31,276 nucleotides of DNA from a virus. Position numbers and translations under genes: made by a program. The stretch is taken from positions 9,589 to 40,864 of the IMG/VR virus record IMGVR_UViG_3300030430_004073. One strand, given 5' to 3'. The number at the start of each line of letters is the position of its first letter. Within the stretch, counting starts at the first letter, position 1. The notes beneath the pieces are model-generated. The model was not told the DNA's origin. It did no database searches and worked only from the letters and a program-made list of their open reading frames with translations. Below are positions 12,296-22,260 of the stretch, piece after piece.

Positions 12296-13481
12296 ACAAT
12301 TAATTGACGGATCAGCAGTTGGTATAAAAGAAGCATTTCGTAAGAAAACACTGTTTGGTGCAATAGCAACTTCAAAATATAAAAATTTAGTTGATTTTAA
12401 TTTTGCTGAAAAACAATTATACGGCAGAGTTAATAGAGTTTTTACCCCAATTGTTGCCAATGAAAAAGTTTTTAGTTTTGTTAGTTTACCCAGCACTGAT
12501 GCAGGCAATGTAACTGTTTATAACTTTGTTGCACATGCATTCATACAGCTTCAAAACAGATTCAAAATCAAATCACAAAGAGGCGAGATACAGTCTGGTG
12601 AAACATTTTTAACAGATTTAATTCCATACAAAGGTTATAGAGATCCCAAAGGGTTATATGACTCTTACACTACGATGTACGCTGATGTTATGAGTGAGAT
12701 TGCAAGAGATGAGAAAATCTTTTATACTGATTTTAATGAGTTCATGAATAAAATGACACCATTCATTGAGAATACTATTAAAAATAAAAAACCTTTTACT
12801 TACCCAGCTTTTATCAAGGACAAAAAATGTCCGATTAATGTTTCTGGACTGGTTATTGAAATTGGTGATATTGACCCCTCAAATGACATGGACAAGTTTG
12901 AAGATTTTTATAGTAGCAACAACTGGGATTTTTACTTAAATGCATGCAACACTTACGGATTTATGGTTGATGCGAATAATCCTCAAAGATTAGTGGCCGA
13001 TATTGGATCAGCAGCCATGACTGAATACATGAGGCTATATAATCGAGCCGTTGGCTCAACTGATGCTTTTCTTAACTCTTCTTATGATCCAGTTGGCTCC
13101 AAGTATTTTATAAATTTTAAGTTTTTTCTATATAGCATTTATAATGAATCTAGAAAACCAAAAATTATCACAATGACGGAAAATTCAAATGACGGTACAA
13201 AAATTGAAATTACTGAAAGTGTCTCATACACATTTGGTGATTTTCAAAAACAATTTGATGATTTGTATTTTTTCAAATTATATGCTAAAATAAGATTCAT
13301 GGAAGAAGAGAGTAAATTTACTGAGTATGAAAAAACCAGTTTGATTAATGAAGCCACTGAGCTTGCCAAGGTGAACATATCCTTAGCTATCGATTTATTT
13401 GAAGAAATATTAAATAGAACATTTGACTATTCAGGCTCATTAAGCTATATTACGCAGAGACAAAAGAACTTGAGGCTTTAG
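12288..13481 (+). CDS. Probable virion structural protein (baseplate region), function unknown
   Basis: A 397-residue soluble protein with no clear domain name. A segment DFYLNACNTYGFMVDANNPQRLVADIGSA and an earlier LIPYKGYRDPKGLYDSY block look like conserved structural proteins in distant T4-like marine phages, but I cannot assign a numbered T4 homologue. The C-terminal half is helical. The start is ATG at 12288, which overlaps the previous gene by 8 bases (ATGAGTAA) and has AGGTGG at 12274-12279; a GTG at 12276 in the same frame lies inside that site and is less likely. Being the last gene of the tail block and coupled to the hub candidate suggests a baseplate or fibre-attachment role. This is inference. 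Confidence 0.45.
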   Translation: MSKQLIDGSAVGIKEAFRKKTLFGAIATSKYKNLVDFNFAEKQLYGRVNRVFTPIVANEKVFSFVSLPSTDAGNVTVYNFVAHAFIQLQNRFKIKSQRGEIQSGETFLTDLIPYKGYRDPKGLYDSYTTMYADVMSEIARDEKIFYTDFNEFMNKMTPFIENTIKNKKPFTYPAFIKDKKCPINVSGLVIEIGDIDPSNDMDKFEDFYSSNNWDFYLNACNTYGFMVDANNPQRLVADIGSAAMTEYMRLYNRAVGSTDAFLNSSYDPVGSKYFINFKFFLYSIYNESRKPKIITMTENSNDGTKIEITESVSYTFGDFQKQFDDLYFFKLYAKIRFMEEESKFTEYEKTSLINEATELAKVNISLAIDLFEEILNRTFDYSGSLSYITQRQKNLRL

Positions 13482-14683
13482 TGTATTTTCAGGCATTAGA
13501 TGATAAAAAAACATGTGTTGGAATCTACCATGATGGAAATCTTATATTTGATGAATCAAAGTTTCCAGAATCTTTTAAAGATTCAAAGACGTGGCGATAC
13601 TCAGGTTTTCTGAATGATGATTCAATTGATTACGGCTGGATTCTTTCCGAAGGCGCTTCACTTGAGCGTATGTGCCCTAAAGATCTCGAAGAATCATTCA
13701 AGAGAGTAAATAGAAAAATGCACGCTTTCAAAAAGTCTTTTGAGCTTGCTAAGATTAATTTTAATAATCATTGTTTTTTTGACCTTGTGCCTCATGATTT
13801 TTTGTGTGAGTTTTTAGAAATTAAAAATGATATTACTAAACATGTGTTCGATATTTTTGACAAGCAAGAATATTATGACCATCTTGTTAGCGTTGAAAAG
13901 CTTTTGTATAAAATTCGATATCAAAACTTAAACATAAACAACGATAACTGCAGAGGGCTTTTTATGAGTTCTATGTCTAGAGGTGAAGTACAAAAAATTC
14001 TCAAGAGTAGCAAGAGAATTGATTACAATATTTTTGGAACTAGAACTGGTCGATTGTCAACATACTTTAAATCGTTTCCAATTTTAACAATGAGAAAAGA
14101 AACCCGAGCGCTGATCAAGCCTCATAATGATTGGTTTATATCACTTGATTATAATGGCGCCGAAGTTCGCACTGTGTTGGCTTTATTAGATGTTGAACAG
14201 CCACTTGGCGATGTTCACAATTGGAACATTCAAAATATTCTAAAGAAAAAGGGTATCATTGACCGCGAAAAAGCTAAGACATTCTTCTTTTCTTGGCTTT
14301 ACAACCCAGAGTCAAAAAAGATCGAAAATACGATATATAATCGCGAACTTCTAAATGAGCGATACTACCATAATGGATATGTTTGCACACCATTTGGACG
14401 TGAAATATTTGTGAACGATTATAAGTCAGTAAACTATTTAATACAGAGCACTACAGCAGATCTTGTCAACGAACGCGCAGTGGCGCTGGACAAGTTTTTG
14501 AGCGATAAAAAGACATTTATTTCGCACATTGTTCACGATGAAGTGGTGCTGGATATGCCAAATAGTGAGAGATACTTGATTCCTGAAATCAAAAAAATAT
14601 TTTCCCAAAACTCCCTTGCAGAATTTAAAACAAACTTGCGCGCTGGTAAGGACTACTATGACATTGGAGTTTTAAATTTATGA
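13481..14683 (+). CDS. DNA polymerase, family A, polymerase domain only
   Basis: Template-directed DNA synthesis. All family A polymerase motifs are present in a 400-residue protein: TRTGRLST (187-194); motif A DYNGAEVR (223-230), with D223 and E228 matching Taq D610 and E615; motif B R262-x3-K266-x3-F270-x3-Y274, the spacing of the Taq O helix; GYVCTPFGRE (299-308); QSTTADL (322-328); and motif C HDE (352-354). The final Gly after the O-helix Tyr is Asn here. There is no 5' nuclease and no recognisable 3'-5' exonuclease domain; residues 1-140 are unassigned. Rhodothermus phage RM378 also encodes family A polymerase and exonuclease as separate proteins, from memory. GTG start at 13481 shares a base with the previous stop; the gene ends in an ATGA overlap with the next. 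Confidence 0.92.
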   Translation: MYFQALDDKKTCVGIYHDGNLIFDESKFPESFKDSKTWRYSGFLNDDSIDYGWILSEGASLERMCPKDLEESFKRVNRKMHAFKKSFELAKINFNNHCFFDLVPHDFLCEFLEIKNDITKHVFDIFDKQEYYDHLVSVEKLLYKIRYQNLNINNDNCRGLFMSSMSRGEVQKILKSSKRIDYNIFGTRTGRLSTYFKSFPILTMRKETRALIKPHNDWFISLDYNGAEVRTVLALLDVEQPLGDVHNWNIQNILKKKGIIDREKAKTFFFSWLYNPESKKIENTIYNRELLNERYYHNGYVCTPFGREIFVNDYKSVNYLIQSTTADLVNERAVALDKFLSDKKTFISHIVHDEVVLDMPNSERYLIPEIKKIFSQNSLAEFKTNLRAGKDYYDIGVLNL

Positions 14684-15543
14684 TCTCTATTGTTGGAATT
14701 GGCAACGCTGCGTCGAAAATTGCCGAGAACTTTAAAACTCAGAAAAACAATTATAAGATTTATCAACTTAGTTCCGATTGTAAAAACACTAAGTTTACAC
14801 GGAAGCTTGAGCGTTTTGAAAATCCAGAGGATTATGAAAACAATATTCCTGATCTTAAAAAATTTTTTAGTGATATTACCGATGACGTTCAAGTTATCAT
14901 TGTTGGCGCTTCTCTAAGCTCCAACTACGCACTCGGTATTCTTGAGCAGATTAAAGAAAAAAATATTAATGTGTTCTATGTCAAACCAGATATTGAACTG
15001 CTTACCGGTGTTCCTAAGCTATTAGAAAACATGATGTTTGGTGTATTACAGGAATATGCGCGTTCTGGTCTTTTTCAGTCACTTACTATTATTTCTAATC
15101 TTGAGCTAGAAAAAGGTATTCAAGACTTATCAATTAAGAATTATTATGATAAAATAAATGAAACAATTTTCTCGTGCATGCATTATATGAACTTTTTCAA
15201 TCACACAGAACCAGAAATAGGTATCATGTCCCGGCCGTCTAAAATAAATCGTATTAAAAGCATCGGTATGCTGGATTCAAAAACTTTGAAAGAAAAATGG
15301 TTTTTTCCACTTGACATGACTCGTGAAACATATTATTATATTTGCATTAATGAAGAAAAACTGGAGAAAGAAGTTGGTTTACACCGTAAACTTGTAAGCA
15401 TTTTAAAAGATAAACCCCGCAATGCTTATAAGAAAATTTCTTATGGTATATGGGGCACACACTTAAATGACTTTGGGTTCTGCGTTGCCCACACTAACGC
15501 AATACAACAACAAAATACCCTTGACAAGCTAGAACAAGGGTGA
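14680..15543 (+). CDS. Rossmann-type protein resembling a degenerate tubulin/FtsZ
   Basis: The reading frame is solid; the function is not known. The order of elements resembles FtsZ/tubulin: a first strand and glycine turn ISIVGIGNAASKIAENF (2-18), SSD (31-33) after a second strand, then VQVIIVGASLSSNYALGILEQIKEKNINVFYVKPD (70-104, read as strand, loop, helix, strand), where FtsZ has its GGGTGTG nucleotide loop. This is followed by VLQEYARSGLFQSLTIISN (122-140), like the FtsZ strand ending in IPND, and a helix YYDKINETIF. The glycine loop is GASLSSN instead of GGGTGTG, so GTP binding may be lost. Another Rossmann protein is possible. It overlaps the polymerase stop by ATGA and precedes gp32, and its 3' end carries the likely gp32 promoter. 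Confidence 0.4.
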   Translation: MISIVGIGNAASKIAENFKTQKNNYKIYQLSSDCKNTKFTRKLERFENPEDYENNIPDLKKFFSDITDDVQVIIVGASLSSNYALGILEQIKEKNINVFYVKPDIELLTGVPKLLENMMFGVLQEYARSGLFQSLTIISNLELEKGIQDLSIKNYYDKINETIFSCMHYMNFFNHTEPEIGIMSRPSKINRIKSIGMLDSKTLKEKWFFPLDMTRETYYYICINEEKLEKEVGLHRKLVSILKDKPRNAYKKISYGIWGTHLNDFGFCVAHTNAIQQQNTLDKLEQG

Positions 15544-15549
15544 TACATT
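15521..15549 (+). promoter_or_regulatory. Candidate sigma70 promoter for the gp32-like gene
   Basis: TTGACA at 15521-15526 is followed after 17 bases by TACATT at 15544-15549 (four of six matches to TATAAT). It lies at the 3' end of the tubulin-like gene, about 50 bases before the SSB start. Predicted initiation is near 15556, inside the left arm of the hairpin at 15552-15572. Confidence 0.5.
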
Positions 15550-15551
15550 AG

Positions 15552-15572
15552 ATGCTGTGGCAAGCACAGTAT
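15552..15572 (+). promoter_or_regulatory. Hairpin in the gp32-like gene leader
   Basis: ATGCTGTG (15552-15559) pairs with CACAGTAT (15565-15572) around a GCAAG loop, an 8-bp stem with one G-U pair. It sits between the upstream stop codon and the AGGAGA ribosome-binding site (15585-15590). No T-run follows, so it is more likely a leader element than a terminator. T4 gene 32 is controlled by an RNA structure in its leader; whether this plays that role is untested. Confidence 0.4.
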
Positions 15573-15598
15573 ACTTTAACAAATAGGAGAAAATACTA

Positions 15599-16372
15599 AT
15601 GTCAATTAACATGGAACTTATGCGTAAGAAGCTTGCTTCTTTGCGCGGCGAAGGCGGGGACAAACAGGATTCTGTTTGGTTTAAGCCACAAGAAGGAGAG
15701 CAAGATATCAGGATTGTTCCAACACCTGATGGCGATCCACTTAAAGAAGTTTACTTTCATTATAATGTAGGTGAACACAAGCGTGGCATCATGTGCCCAA
15801 AGCGAAACTTTGGTGAACGATGCCCAATTTGCGATTTTGCTTCCTCTCTTTGGAGAGAAGGAAGTGAAACCAATGATGAGGAAAGCAAGAAGCTTGCAAA
15901 GTCACTATTCGTGCGAGCACGCTACTTCTCTCCCGTTATTTGGCGTGGTCACGAAGGAGAAGGTATCAAGGTTTACGGTTATGGTAAGCGAGCATACGAA
16001 AACCTTCTTGGCTACATTTTAGACCCAGAGTACGGTGATATCACCGATACACACTCTGGCACCGATATTGCGTTGACTTATACAAAGCCAACGTCACCCG
16101 GAGCTTATCCACAAACAAACTTGAAAATGCGTAGAAGTTCGTCGCCATTGCTGGAAGACACTGAGGCAATCCCTGCCCTCCTAGACAGCATGCCCGATAT
16201 TGAGTCATTGTTTGAGCGCCTTAGTCCCGAAGAAATCGATGCGATCCTTGACGAGCAATTATCCGGTGATGCAAGTGCTGAGTCTCGTTCCAACGAGTCC
16301 AGCAAATACAACACTGACGCTTCAGTCAACCCAGTTGATGCTGCATTTGATGAACTAATGGCAAATAAATAG
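15599..16372 (+). CDS. Single-stranded DNA-binding protein (T4 gp32-like)
   Basis: Coats single-stranded DNA during replication and recombination, working with UvsX and the helicase. At 257 residues it has the T4 gp32 zinc site: H54, C66, C75 and C78 (CPKRNFGERCPIC at 66-78), with spacing close to T4 H64-C77-C87-C90. The N-terminus MELMRKKLASLRGEGG has the basic patch and LAS element used for cooperative binding, and the region SVWFKPQEGEQDIRIVPTPDG starts the OB fold. The C-terminal ~70 residues are Ser/Glu/Asp-rich, the usual partner-binding tail, ending DAAFDELMANK. An AGGAGA site precedes the ATG. It has its own candidate promoter and leader hairpin and is followed by a terminator-like RNA structure. 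Confidence 0.92.
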   Translation: MSINMELMRKKLASLRGEGGDKQDSVWFKPQEGEQDIRIVPTPDGDPLKEVYFHYNVGEHKRGIMCPKRNFGERCPICDFASSLWREGSETNDEESKKLAKSLFVRARYFSPVIWRGHEGEGIKVYGYGKRAYENLLGYILDPEYGDITDTHSGTDIALTYTKPTSPGAYPQTNLKMRRSSSPLLEDTEAIPALLDSMPDIESLFERLSPEEIDAILDEQLSGDASAESRSNESSKYNTDASVNPVDAAFDELMANK

Positions 16373-16383
16373 TTTGTTATCGG

Positions 16384-16417
16384 AGCCGCTAGCAGACCGG
16401 CTATAGTCTGCCCGTTT
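16384..16417 (+). terminator. RNA structure copy 1: pseudoknot or weak terminator
   Basis: AGCCG (16384-16388) can pair with CGGCT (16398-16402), and GCAGAC (16392-16397), in the loop of that stem, can pair with GTCTGC (16406-16411). The two stems interleave with 3-base connecting loops, which is H-type pseudoknot geometry. Taken alone, the second stem followed by CCGTTT resembles a weak intrinsic terminator. A second copy lies at 16700-16734. It begins 12 bases after the gp32-like stop codon. Confidence 0.45.
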
Positions 16418-16437
16418 ACCATAAAAAGGAGTATATT

Positions 16438-16695
16438 ATGGAATGGTTGAGAAGTACATTGCAACGTTGGAGAGTGCAAGTTAGTTTTGTTGCTGGGGCA
16501 CTAGTTGTCGCAACAGCATACGGAACATGCACTGTTTCCCCAGAAGTTGCTGAAGAAGTAAGTGAGGTTACAACTGAAACTGTTGTTGAGCCTCCTTCGG
16601 TTGAGGTTTCTACATCTGAAACTGTTGATGTTGAAGCGCCTGCCGAGGCTACAAGCACAGAAACAACCACTACAGAAGCTACTGAAACGGAATAG
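16438..16695 (+). CDS. Small single-span membrane protein with acidic Thr/Glu tail
   Basis: An 85-residue protein of unknown function. Residues 1-13 are short, basic and Trp-containing (MEWLRSTLQRWRV); about 14-30 form one hydrophobic span (VSFVAGALVVATAYG). The rest has no Lys or Arg and is rich in Glu, Thr and Val (for example STETTTTEATETE). Charge distribution predicts the N-terminus in the cytoplasm and the acidic tail outside. The AYGTC at 27-31 is not a proper lipobox because Thr precedes the Cys. An AAGGAG site (16426-16431) sits just before the ATG. It lies between two similar RNA structures as a separate transcription or translation unit. Superinfection exclusion or an envelope role are guesses; nothing shows which. 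Confidence 0.65.
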   Translation: MEWLRSTLQRWRVQVSFVAGALVVATAYGTCTVSPEVAEEVSEVTTETVVEPPSVEVSTSETVDVEAPAEATSTETTTTEATETE

Positions 16696-16699
16696 CTGC

Positions 16700-16736
16700 A
16701 GCCGCTGGCAGACCGGTGTAAAGTCTGCCGTTTTCT
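16700..16736 (+). terminator. RNA structure copy 2: probable intrinsic terminator, possible pseudoknot
   Basis: GGCAGAC (16707-16713) pairs perfectly with GTCTGCC (16723-16729) and is followed by GTTTTCT, a reasonable Rho-independent terminator. GCCG (16701-16704) can also pair with CGGT (16714-16717), interleaved as in copy 1. The core GCCGCT-GCAGACCGG-AGTCTGCC-GTTT is shared with 16384-16417, and the differing bases mostly keep pairing. Confidence 0.55.
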
Positions 16737-16798
16737 AATCGCAAAGTTTTTACTAACTGATTTGTAAAGACGATGCAATCTAACAAAGGAGAACAGAT

Positions 16799-20004: not shown

Positions 20005-20033
20005 TTGACATCATTAATTTATGGTGTTATCTT
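20005..20033 (+). promoter_or_regulatory. Candidate sigma70 promoter for the uvsX-like gene
   Basis: TTGACA (20005-20010), 17-base spacer, TATCTT (20028-20033). A perfect TATAAT also sits at 20038-20043 but is 27 bases from the -35. AGGAGGG at 20048-20054 precedes the ATG. Confidence 0.5.
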
Positions 20034-20057: not shown

Positions 20058-21206
20058 ATGCCTAAGAAAACCACCGCCAAGGCCGGGCGTGTAAATTTAC
20101 AAGATCTTATGAAACTTGTAAATAAAAAAGCAGGTCAAAACGTTGCTCACGATCTTACGGGCGATAACCCTACGTCTGTCAAAGAATGGATTCCAACCGG
20201 CTCACGCTGGCTAGACTCTATCATTGCTAAAGGTCAAATCGCTGGTATTCCAGTGGGTAAGATTACAGAGATTGCAGGTCTTGAAGCAACTGGCAAATCA
20301 TACATGGCAACACAGATTGCCGCCAACGCCCAGAAAGCGGGTAAGATGGTCGTTTATTTCGATTCTGAGTCTGCTATCGACCCAATGTTCTTGGAGCGAG
20401 CAGGATGCGATCTAGAGCGATTAATGTACGTTCAAGCATCCTCTGTCGAGTTTGTGCTTGAGACTATCGAAGAGTTACTTGGTGCAACTGATGAGCAGAT
20501 GGTTTTTATCTGGGATTCACTAGCATTTACGCCATCAATCTCTGATGTTCAAGGTGACTTCAACCCACAATCATCAATGGCTGTCAAAGCTCGTATTCTC
20601 GCTAAGGGTATGTCAAAGCTTGTTATTCCTATTGCGGATAAGAAAGCAACGTTTATTGTTCTTAACCAGCTTAAGACCAACATCCCGCAGGGTCCGCTAG
20701 CTAGACAAATTGCAATGACAACGCCCTATATCACTCCCGGTGGTAAAGCGATGCATTATGCATACTCGCTTCGGATTTGGCTCACCGGCCGAAAAGCAAA
20801 GTCCGCATTCATCGAAGACGAACGAGGTTTCCGTATTGGCTCTGAAGTTAAAGTAAAACTTGAAAAGTCTCGCTTTGGTACCCAAGGTCGTTCCTGTGCA
20901 TTCCGCATTATGTGGGGCACTGATGATGTTGGTATCCGAGATGAGGAATCTTGGTTTGATGCTATTAAAGGTTCCGAACATCTATCATCCGCCGGCGCAT
21001 GGTATACGCTATCAATGCCTGATGGATATGTTAAGAAATTTCAGCCTTCAAAGTGGACTGAGCTTGTAACATCTGATGAAGAATTTAAAAGCAGAGTTAT
21101 CAGTATTATGGACGAAGAAATCGTGCAGAAGTTTGATAAACGCCAAGGCGATGCTAGCACATACTACGAAGATCCAGAGGATATATCAGTTCCAATAAAA
21201 GAATAA
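20058..21206 (+). CDS. UvsX/RecA-like recombinase
   Basis: ATP-dependent strand exchange protein that forms filaments on gp32-cleared single-stranded DNA and starts recombination-dependent replication. Walker A is GLEATGKS (74-81), preceded by the family's strand GKITEIA; Walker B is MVFIWDS (148-154); FDSESAIDP (101-109) and VLNQLKTNIPQG further on match the RecA/UvsX L2 neighbourhood, followed by TPGGKAMHYAYSLRI. Length (382) is close to T4 UvsX (391). The N-terminus is basic, as in UvsX. It has its own promoter candidate and a very strong Shine-Dalgarno, consistent with high expression, and stands ahead of fen and dnaB. Confidence 0.95.
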   Translation: MPKKTTAKAGRVNLQDLMKLVNKKAGQNVAHDLTGDNPTSVKEWIPTGSRWLDSIIAKGQIAGIPVGKITEIAGLEATGKSYMATQIAANAQKAGKMVVYFDSESAIDPMFLERAGCDLERLMYVQASSVEFVLETIEELLGATDEQMVFIWDSLAFTPSISDVQGDFNPQSSMAVKARILAKGMSKLVIPIADKKATFIVLNQLKTNIPQGPLARQIAMTTPYITPGGKAMHYAYSLRIWLTGRKAKSAFIEDERGFRIGSEVKVKLEKSRFGTQGRSCAFRIMWGTDDVGIRDEESWFDAIKGSEHLSSAGAWYTLSMPDGYVKKFQPSKWTELVTSDEEFKSRVISIMDEEIVQKFDKRQGDASTYYEDPEDISVPIKE

Positions 21207-21214
21207 AATATTAC

Positions 21215-21243
21215 TTGACTATTGACCTCCGATGAGTTATTCT
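21215..21243 (+). promoter_or_regulatory. Candidate promoter inside the fen leader hairpin
   Basis: TTGACT (21215-21220), 17-base spacer, TATTCT (21238-21243). The -10 lies in the loop of the inverted repeat at 21225-21258, and predicted initiation near 21250 falls at the start of its right arm. A transcript from here would lack the left arm. Confidence 0.45.
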
Positions 21244-21258
21244 ATGACTGTCGGAGGT
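21225..21258 (+). promoter_or_regulatory. Hairpin that hides the fen ribosome-binding site
   Basis: ACCTCCGA (21225-21232) and TCGGAGGT (21251-21258) form a perfect 8-bp stem with an 18-base loop. The right arm contains the whole Shine-Dalgarno GGAGG (21253-21257), six bases before the ATG at 21264. Transcripts reading through from uvsX can fold it and block ribosomes. The six T that follow could also make it a weak terminator, but they lead straight into the start codon. Confidence 0.6.
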
Positions 21259-21263
21259 TTTTT

Positions 21264-22232
21264 ATGTCAGAGCAGAAAAAAAGGGTTATTGTTATTGATG
21301 CCCTTAACATGTTCATCCGTGCCTATATTGTTGATCCATCTTTATCTACAAATGGTCAGCCAATTGGAGGTATCAAAGGAACTATCAAGATTTTACAAAA
21401 GCTGGTTCGCATGACTGAACCAGACGAAATCGTGATGGTTTGGGATGGACCCAATGGCTCATTGAAAAGAAAAAGTATTGATAAGAACTACAAAGAAGGT
21501 CGTAAGCCGTTACGCCTGAATAGAGCCGTACATAACCTCACAGATAACGAAGTGATTCATAATAAAATATGGCAGCAAACTAGAGTGATGTCTTATTTTA
21601 ATGAAATGCCGATTATACAAATTATTATTCCAGAGGTTGAAGCTGACGATGTTATCTCGCAAGTTACAAAACTAGAAAAGTATGACGGGTGGCAGAAAGT
21701 CATTATCTCTAATGATAAAGACTTTTTACAGTTGTGTGATGATTCGACAGTTGTATATCGACCAACTAGTAATCAACTCGTAAATAAAAACCGAGTTATT
21801 GAAGAATATGGAGTCCACCCAAACAACATGGCACTAGCTAGAGCTATAGTTGGTGATGCTTCAGATAACCTGATTGGCATTAAAGGTGCAGGCTTGATCT
21901 CGGTCAAGAAAAGACTGTCTTTCCTTGCGTCGGAAAAAGACTATACTATCAACGAGTTAGTTGATTTCTGTGAGAAAGCAGATAGTAAATTGAAATTTTT
22001 TACTAACATCATTGAGGGAAAAGAAGTTATTTCTCATAATTATAAAATGATGCAACTGTACGCACCGTTGTTATCATTTCAATCAAAGCAGTTTATCTCT
22101 GAATCGATTGAAAACTTCCAGTGTACCTTCAACAAAACAGAAATTTTATCTCTAATGAGAGAGGATGGTTTTGGTGAATTGAACTGGGAAGATTTGAGAG
22201 CAAATCTAAATAGAATTTTATTAAATTGCTAG
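21264..22232 (+). CDS. RNase H / 5'-3' exonuclease (T4 Rnh, FEN family)
   Basis: Removes RNA primers and 5' flaps during lagging-strand synthesis. The 322-residue protein carries the FEN/5' nuclease acidic residues in order: VIVIDALN (D12), MVWDGPNG (D61), PEVEADDV (E126, D128, D129), SNDKDF (D151, D153) and GDASDNLIGIKGAG (D198, D201), ending in the helix-hairpin-helix needed for duplex binding. Length is close to T4 Rnh (305). The start is ATG 21264, decided by GGAGG at 21253-21257; a longer frame from TTG 21222 would run through the hairpin. It provides the 5' nuclease that the short family A polymerase here lacks. Likely controlled by the leader hairpin and internal promoter. Confidence 0.92.
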   Translation: MSEQKKRVIVIDALNMFIRAYIVDPSLSTNGQPIGGIKGTIKILQKLVRMTEPDEIVMVWDGPNGSLKRKSIDKNYKEGRKPLRLNRAVHNLTDNEVIHNKIWQQTRVMSYFNEMPIIQIIIPEVEADDVISQVTKLEKYDGWQKVIISNDKDFLQLCDDSTVVYRPTSNQLVNKNRVIEEYGVHPNNMALARAIVGDASDNLIGIKGAGLISVKKRLSFLASEKDYTINELVDFCEKADSKLKFFTNIIEGKEVISHNYKMMQLYAPLLSFQSKQFISESIENFQCTFNKTEILSLMREDGFGELNWEDLRANLNRILLNC

Positions 22233-22260
22233 TTGACAATTTCACTAAACAATTTATAAT
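22233..22260 (+). promoter_or_regulatory. Consensus sigma70 promoter for the dnaB-like gene
   Basis: A perfect TTGACA (22233-22238), 16-base spacer and perfect TATAAT (22255-22260), beginning one base after the fen stop codon. Predicted initiation is near 22267, giving a leader of about 11 bases before the TTG start. Confidence 0.75.

What the first reader, a model, noticed from the sequence alone, without database searches (positions are those of the whole stretch)
21215..21266. Hairpin hides the fen ribosome-binding site while a promoter lies in its loop
The perfect 8-bp inverted repeat masks GGAGG six bases before the ATG in read-through transcripts from uvsX. A promoter-like pair (TTGACT-17-TATTCT) places its -10 in the loop, so its transcript would start after the left arm and keep the site free. 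T4 uses this layout for genes e, soc and 49 to block translation of early read-through messages.
Basis: partly seen in the sequence, partly recalled or inferred. Interest (0 to 1): 0.65.

Follow-up and report, generated by a model that had tools for sequence, protein, structure and literature searches.

The report
Promoter nested inside a terminator hairpin
Between two DNA-repair genes of an uncultured phage, about 50 bases appear to stop the previous gene's transcript, start the next gene's own transcript from inside the stop signal, and hide the next gene's ribosome site in any run-on message; many related sequences support the layout, but no experiment has tested it.

Summary
The hairpin is stronger than described: a 16-pair stem (21224-21259) followed by T6, the form of an intrinsic terminator. 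In relatives the -35 (TTGAC) and parts of the -10 are the only invariant bases, almost always 17 apart. The arms change but covary: 9 of 10 pairs have changes on both sides, and 98.7% of cells pair against 42-48% when slid. Distant relatives carry a separate terminator followed by a separate promoter at the same uvsX end. Several lineages keep hairpin plus T tract but have the ribosome site beyond it. The best reading is a uvsX terminator with the next gene's sigma70-type promoter nested in it; the right arm doubles as ribosome site, so read-through RNA is also masked. A viral-contig pattern scan gave 88 stretches against 1 with a scrambled -35; 77 of the 88 have a near-perfect -10 although none was specified. 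No close cultured relative and no RNA data were found. New variant of a known kind.

The parts
20058..21206 (+). uvsX-like recombinase gene (upstream gene)
   Evidence: PHROG phrog_97 UvsX-like recombinase E 1.7e-59
21215..21220 (+). -35 box TTGACT
   Evidence: TTGAC invariant in 25 aligned relatives
21225..21232 (+). left arm ACCTCCGA, lying inside the -35/-10 spacer
   Evidence: the stem's left side extends over 21224-21240 in the fold
21238..21243 (+). -10 box TATTCT, in the loop of the 8-bp repeat (upper stem and loop of the full fold)
   Evidence: TA...T conserved; spacer 17 in 95 of 110 distinct elements
21249..21251 (+). predicted transcription start region
   Evidence: inference: 6-8 nt after the -10; not measured
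21251..21258 (+). right arm TCGGAGGT
21253..21257 (+). GGAGG ribosome-binding site of fen, inside the right arm
   Evidence: sequence; accessibility model
21258..21263 (+). T6 tract: terminator U tract and also SD-to-ATG spacer
21264..22232 (+). fen: 5'-3' exonuclease gene (downstream gene)
   Evidence: PHROG phrog_107 exonuclease E 7.7e-26

Best explanation
A composite gene-boundary element. RNA polymerase coming from uvsX transcribes both arms; the RNA hairpin followed by U6 ends that transcript (inferred). The promoter for fen overlaps the same DNA: its -35 lies just upstream, the left arm fills the 17-nt spacer and the -10 lies in the loop. RNA started there therefore begins at the right arm, cannot form the hairpin, escapes termination and shows GGAGG to the ribosome (inferred from anatomy and folding). 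Any uvsX transcript that reads through keeps the GGAGG paired and should be poorly translated. The result is that fen expression is reset and set by its own promoter. Shown here: the anatomy, its conservation, arm covariation, the predicted fold, and enrichment over controls. Not shown: the transcription start, termination, or any translation effect.
For: Stem plus T6; the classical terminator score is positive for the window (16.9) and for most relatives tested (fold). Arms covary: 9/10 pairs with double changes, 98.7% paired against 78.6% in shuffles and 42-48% when slid. Native arm duplexes average -21.6 kcal/mol, swapped arms -10.7. TTGAC and TA...T are the invariant columns. About 30 of 41 distinct uvsX 3' junctions carry the nested form. 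L053, L059, L061 and L062 have a separate terminator then a separate promoter there; L011, L016 and L020 keep the promoter but lack the paired arms and the long T tract. Pattern scans without a -10: 88 stretches against 1 with scrambled -35, and 84 against 14. Of the 88, 77 have a -10 of at least 5/6 at spacing 17-18; in the second set 37 of 42 distinct hits score at least 4/6 against 0 of 8 controls.
Against: No RNA data. The window's own promoter is only 9/12. Some homologous elements (L035, L045, L050, L028, L019) have weak T tracts with negative terminator scores, so termination may not be the common denominator. T-less versions exist before another gene (L043:5545, L042:8197, L039:8236). 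Distinct sequences are not independent lineages.
Confidence: 0.72

Rival explanations
1. Translational mask only, as in T4 e/soc/49: read-through RNA hides the SD, promoter RNA frees it; termination is negligible and the T run is just a spacer.
For: The SD lies in the right arm in 85 of 96 distinct elements with a recognised SD. T-poor homologous elements (L035, L045, L050) keep the mask. T-less nested hairpins occur before another gene. The T4 precedent is documented.
Against: L017, L070, L026, L037, L042, L043, L058, L115, L129, L251, L290 and others keep hairpin and T tract with the SD beyond them. Outgroups have a plain terminator there. The SD count is partly built in, because the searched arms GAGGG/AGGGG resemble an SD.
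Confidence: 0.17
2. An ordinary uvsX terminator; the promoter-like pair is a chance match and fen is expressed by read-through.
For: The promoter scores only 9/12, and such sites are common in this A+T-rich DNA.
Against: The -35 and -10 are the only invariant columns while the arms change; the promoter persists where the hairpin is lost (L011, L016, L020); a scrambled -35 removes almost all pattern hits.
Confidence: 0.06
3. A DNA dyad: an operator for a dimeric repressor flanking the -10, not an RNA structure.
For: Inverted repeats around a -10 are typical of operators (general knowledge, not tested).
Against: Arm sequences differ widely between relatives yet stay complementary, with G-U pairs tolerated; a T tract follows the 3' arm in most; the arm register slides relative to the promoter by a base or so.
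Confidence: 0.04

Closest known systems
T4 genes e, soc, 49 and I-TevI leaders (RBS-sequestering hairpin with an internal late promoter)
   Same: Long RNA hides the SD in a hairpin; a promoter placed near or between the arms yields RNA without the left arm (PMC3014915, PMC2988022).
   Different: Here the promoter is sigma70-type with a -35 and a 17-nt spacer made of the left arm, the hairpin ends in a T tract, and the gene is a replication/repair gene next to others with the same promoter type.
Intrinsic (Rho-independent) terminators
   Same: G+C-rich stem followed by T6 at the end of uvsX.
   Different: The loop and left arm contain the next gene's promoter and the right arm its ribosome-binding site.
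Tandem terminator-then-promoter boundaries, as in L053, L061 and L062 at the same uvsX end
   Same: Same position and same order of effects.
   Different: There the two signals are separate; here they are superimposed in about 50 bp.

Membership tests
T4-type RBS-sequestering hairpin with internal promoter | SD and/or start codon paired in read-through RNA | tested here: met
   GGAGG arm unpaired probability 0.00 in the modelled read-through RNA
T4-type RBS-sequestering hairpin with internal promoter | Promoter placed so that its RNA lacks the left arm | tested here: met
   Anatomy; modelled promoter RNA leaves the arm 86% unpaired; layout conserved in relatives. The start itself was not measured
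T4-type RBS-sequestering hairpin with internal promoter | The promoter is a phage late promoter (TATAAATA class) | tested here: not met
   Relatives show TTGAC-17-TATAAT, a sigma70 consensus; at this site TATTCTAT
T4-type RBS-sequestering hairpin with internal promoter | Reduced translation of the long RNA | not testable with these tools
   Needs reporter assays
Intrinsic terminator | Stable G+C-rich stem followed directly by a T tract | tested here: met
   Stem and T6; terminator score 16.9. The built-in scan did not list it, probably because of the bulge and its loop limit
Intrinsic terminator | Transcript ends there | not testable with these tools
   Needs 3'-end mapping or in vitro transcription
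Described RNA families (Rfam 15) | Match above gathering score | tested here: not met
   No match in the window

The most novel reading that the evidence does not exclude
The sequence belongs to a widespread, repeatedly arisen class of three-in-one boundaries in uncultured phages: terminator, promoter and ribosome-binding site share the same 50 bases, so genes can be swapped in behind them (fen, a small ORF, a DnaJ-like gene, uvdE) while staying insulated from upstream transcription.
Probability: 0.5. Interest if true: 0.72.

Novelty: new variant of a known kind. Interest (0 to 1): 0.6.

Why it matters
It would be an extreme case of genome compaction. The same bases stop one transcript, start the next and carry its ribosome site, and which function acts depends only on where the RNA began. 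It is a compact, sequence-programmable insulator that could be tested in E. coli, and a recognisable signature (TTGAC, left arm, -10, right arm, T tract) that would improve annotation of transcription units in phages known only from metagenomes.

Tried and rejected
A chance hairpin was rejected. An in-frame extension of fen through the hairpin (TTG 21222) was not favoured, since arm and T-tract lengths vary between relatives. Rfam gave nothing. DNA similarity to annotated phages gave nothing for the window or for three of four other element families; for L233 the best matches shown were short and partial. The closest cultured relative by protein, Microcystis phage Mel-JY01 (about 32-34% identity), has a terminator-like hairpin but no TTGAC promoter between uvsX and fen. 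T7 and the first 50 kb of HTVC008M showed no convincing element even at relaxed settings. Bacterial genomes gave 64 pattern hits in 257 Gb, only 11 of 63 distinct with a -10 of at least 5/6, so the layout is not exclusively viral. The literature searches found no description of a promoter nested in a terminator hairpin in phages; the library lacks most subscription journals, so this is weak evidence of novelty. A first scanner missed the window's element because of greedy G-U extension and was corrected. My automatic count of junctions (29 of 41) was corrected by eye to about 30: L059 and L020 removed, L256, L291 and L301 added. Two apparent elements in the control set (L307, L310) appear to belong to the hits by locus number and contain that pattern; they are not control hits.

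Full report
What is there. The gap between uvsX (20058-21206) and fen (21264-22232) is 57 bp and holds TTGACT, a 17-nt spacer, TATTCT, an inverted repeat whose arms flank the -10, GGAGG in the right arm, T6 and the ATG. The RNA of the gap folds into a 16-pair stem; the 84-nt stretch has -24.4 kcal/mol, z -3.4. In the window no other G+C-rich 8-bp inverted repeat has a T tail, and none arose in 20 shuffles. The genes match UvsX-like recombinase, a 5'-3' exonuclease and, further on, a DnaB-like helicase. The record is a 49-kb virus contig and the relatives come from IMG/VR contigs.

Conservation at the same place. Seventy-one loci encoding relatives of fen (36-99% identity) were fetched. Where their uvsX end is present it mostly carries the same layout with different arms, whether the next gene is fen or a different small gene. 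In an alignment of 25, the invariant bases are TTGAC and the -10's TA...T. In 15 elements of one register, 9 of 10 arm pairs show changes on both sides, 98.7% of cells pair, shuffles give 78.6% and slid pairings 42-48%. Swapping arms between elements halves the duplex energy.

What the variation says about function. About 30 of 41 distinct uvsX junctions are nested (corrected by eye). L053, L059, L061 and L062 have a plain terminator followed by a separate sigma70-type promoter; L060 has a terminator with no evident promoter. L011, L016 and L020 keep the promoter but lack both the paired arms and the long T tract. L018 and L025 have no room for either. In L017, L070, L026, L037, L042, L043, L058, L115, L129, L251, L290 and others the ribosome site is beyond the T tract, so those hairpins cannot mask it, yet hairpin and T tract persist. 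In L035, L045, L050 and L028 the T tract is weak but the ribosome site stays in the arm. Terminator and mask are therefore two partly independent uses of one hairpin; the window's copy is built for both (terminator score 16.9; SD unpaired 0.00 in long RNA, 0.86 in short RNA).

Beyond this family. A pattern fixing only TTGAC, CCCTC/GAGGG arms and T5, leaving the loop open, hit 88 stretches of viral contigs (47 distinct), of which 77 have a -10 of at least 5/6 at spacing 17-18; the same pattern with a scrambled -35 hit one. A second arm pair gave 84 against 14 for its control, with a -10 of at least 4/6 in 37 of 42 distinct hits against 0 of 8. Elements fill the gap between co-directional genes of several unrelated pairs: uvsX with fen, a small ORF or a DnaJ-like gene, several genes with uvdE, and one before a probable tRNA (gene names there are from my reading of the translations). 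Among 110 distinct elements the spacer is 17 in 95 and the SD lies in the right arm in 85, beyond the hairpin in 11, unrecognised in 14; the arms searched for resemble an SD, so that proportion is inflated. A T-less nested hairpin masking the SD occurs before a small gene of about 75 codons in L043, L039 and relatives, the nearest thing to the pure T4 form.

Mechanism and limits. Polymerase arriving from uvsX makes both arms and should stop at the T tract; polymerase starting at the nested promoter makes only the right arm, should not stop, and exposes GGAGG; read-through RNA remains masked. These steps are inferred from anatomy, folding and comparison. Because the T tract lies downstream of the promoter, the element resets the transcript but does not shield the promoter from passing polymerase. 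Nothing here speaks to early or late timing. Counts are of distinct sequences, not of independent origins, and no cultured phage close to the window was found.

Comparison with what is known. T4 uses the mask-plus-internal-promoter layout for e, soc, 49 and I-TevI with late promoters. The element here works like those but is not a member by promoter class, and adds the terminator. I found no published description of the combined form in the open library searched.

Noticed in passing
window 15514-15579, before the SSB gene 15599-16372: A sigma70-like promoter (TTGACA-17-TACATT, -35 inside the end of the previous gene) is followed at once by a hairpin ATGCTGTG-GCAAG-CACAGTAT that covaries strongly in 15 sequences (5 of 8 pairs with double changes, 100% paired; a second stem around the -35 also pairs). 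Candidate autoregulatory site for the SSB protein, in the manner of T4 gene 32, or a 5' stabiliser.
   Followed up: partly
window 22233-22260: Perfect 12/12 sigma70 promoter match (TTGACA-16-TATAAT) starting at the base after the fen stop codon, before the helicase gene; with 20005-20033 before uvsX, each of three consecutive replication genes seems to have its own promoter.
   Followed up: no
window 16373-16437 and 16696-16798: Two similar terminator-like hairpins (GCAGACCGGCTATAGTCTGC and GGCAGACCGGTGTAAAGTCTGCC) flank the short ORF 16438-16695.
   Followed up: no
L043:5545, L042:8197, L039:8236, L041:8235, L051:7489: T-less version: promoter nested in a hairpin that masks the SD of a small gene (about 75 codons) lying after an apparent ribonucleotide reductase gene.
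   Followed up: partly
bacterial loci L189, L207, L214, L224, L226: A few bacterial contigs, mostly Clostridia-like MAGs, show the same nested layout with good -10 boxes.
   Followed up: no
window 13481-14683: A 400-aa ORF matching only the polymerase end of a phage DNA polymerase profile (phrog_17 positions 965-1231 of 1445), beside an unmatched 401-aa ORF: the polymerase may be split.
   Followed up: no
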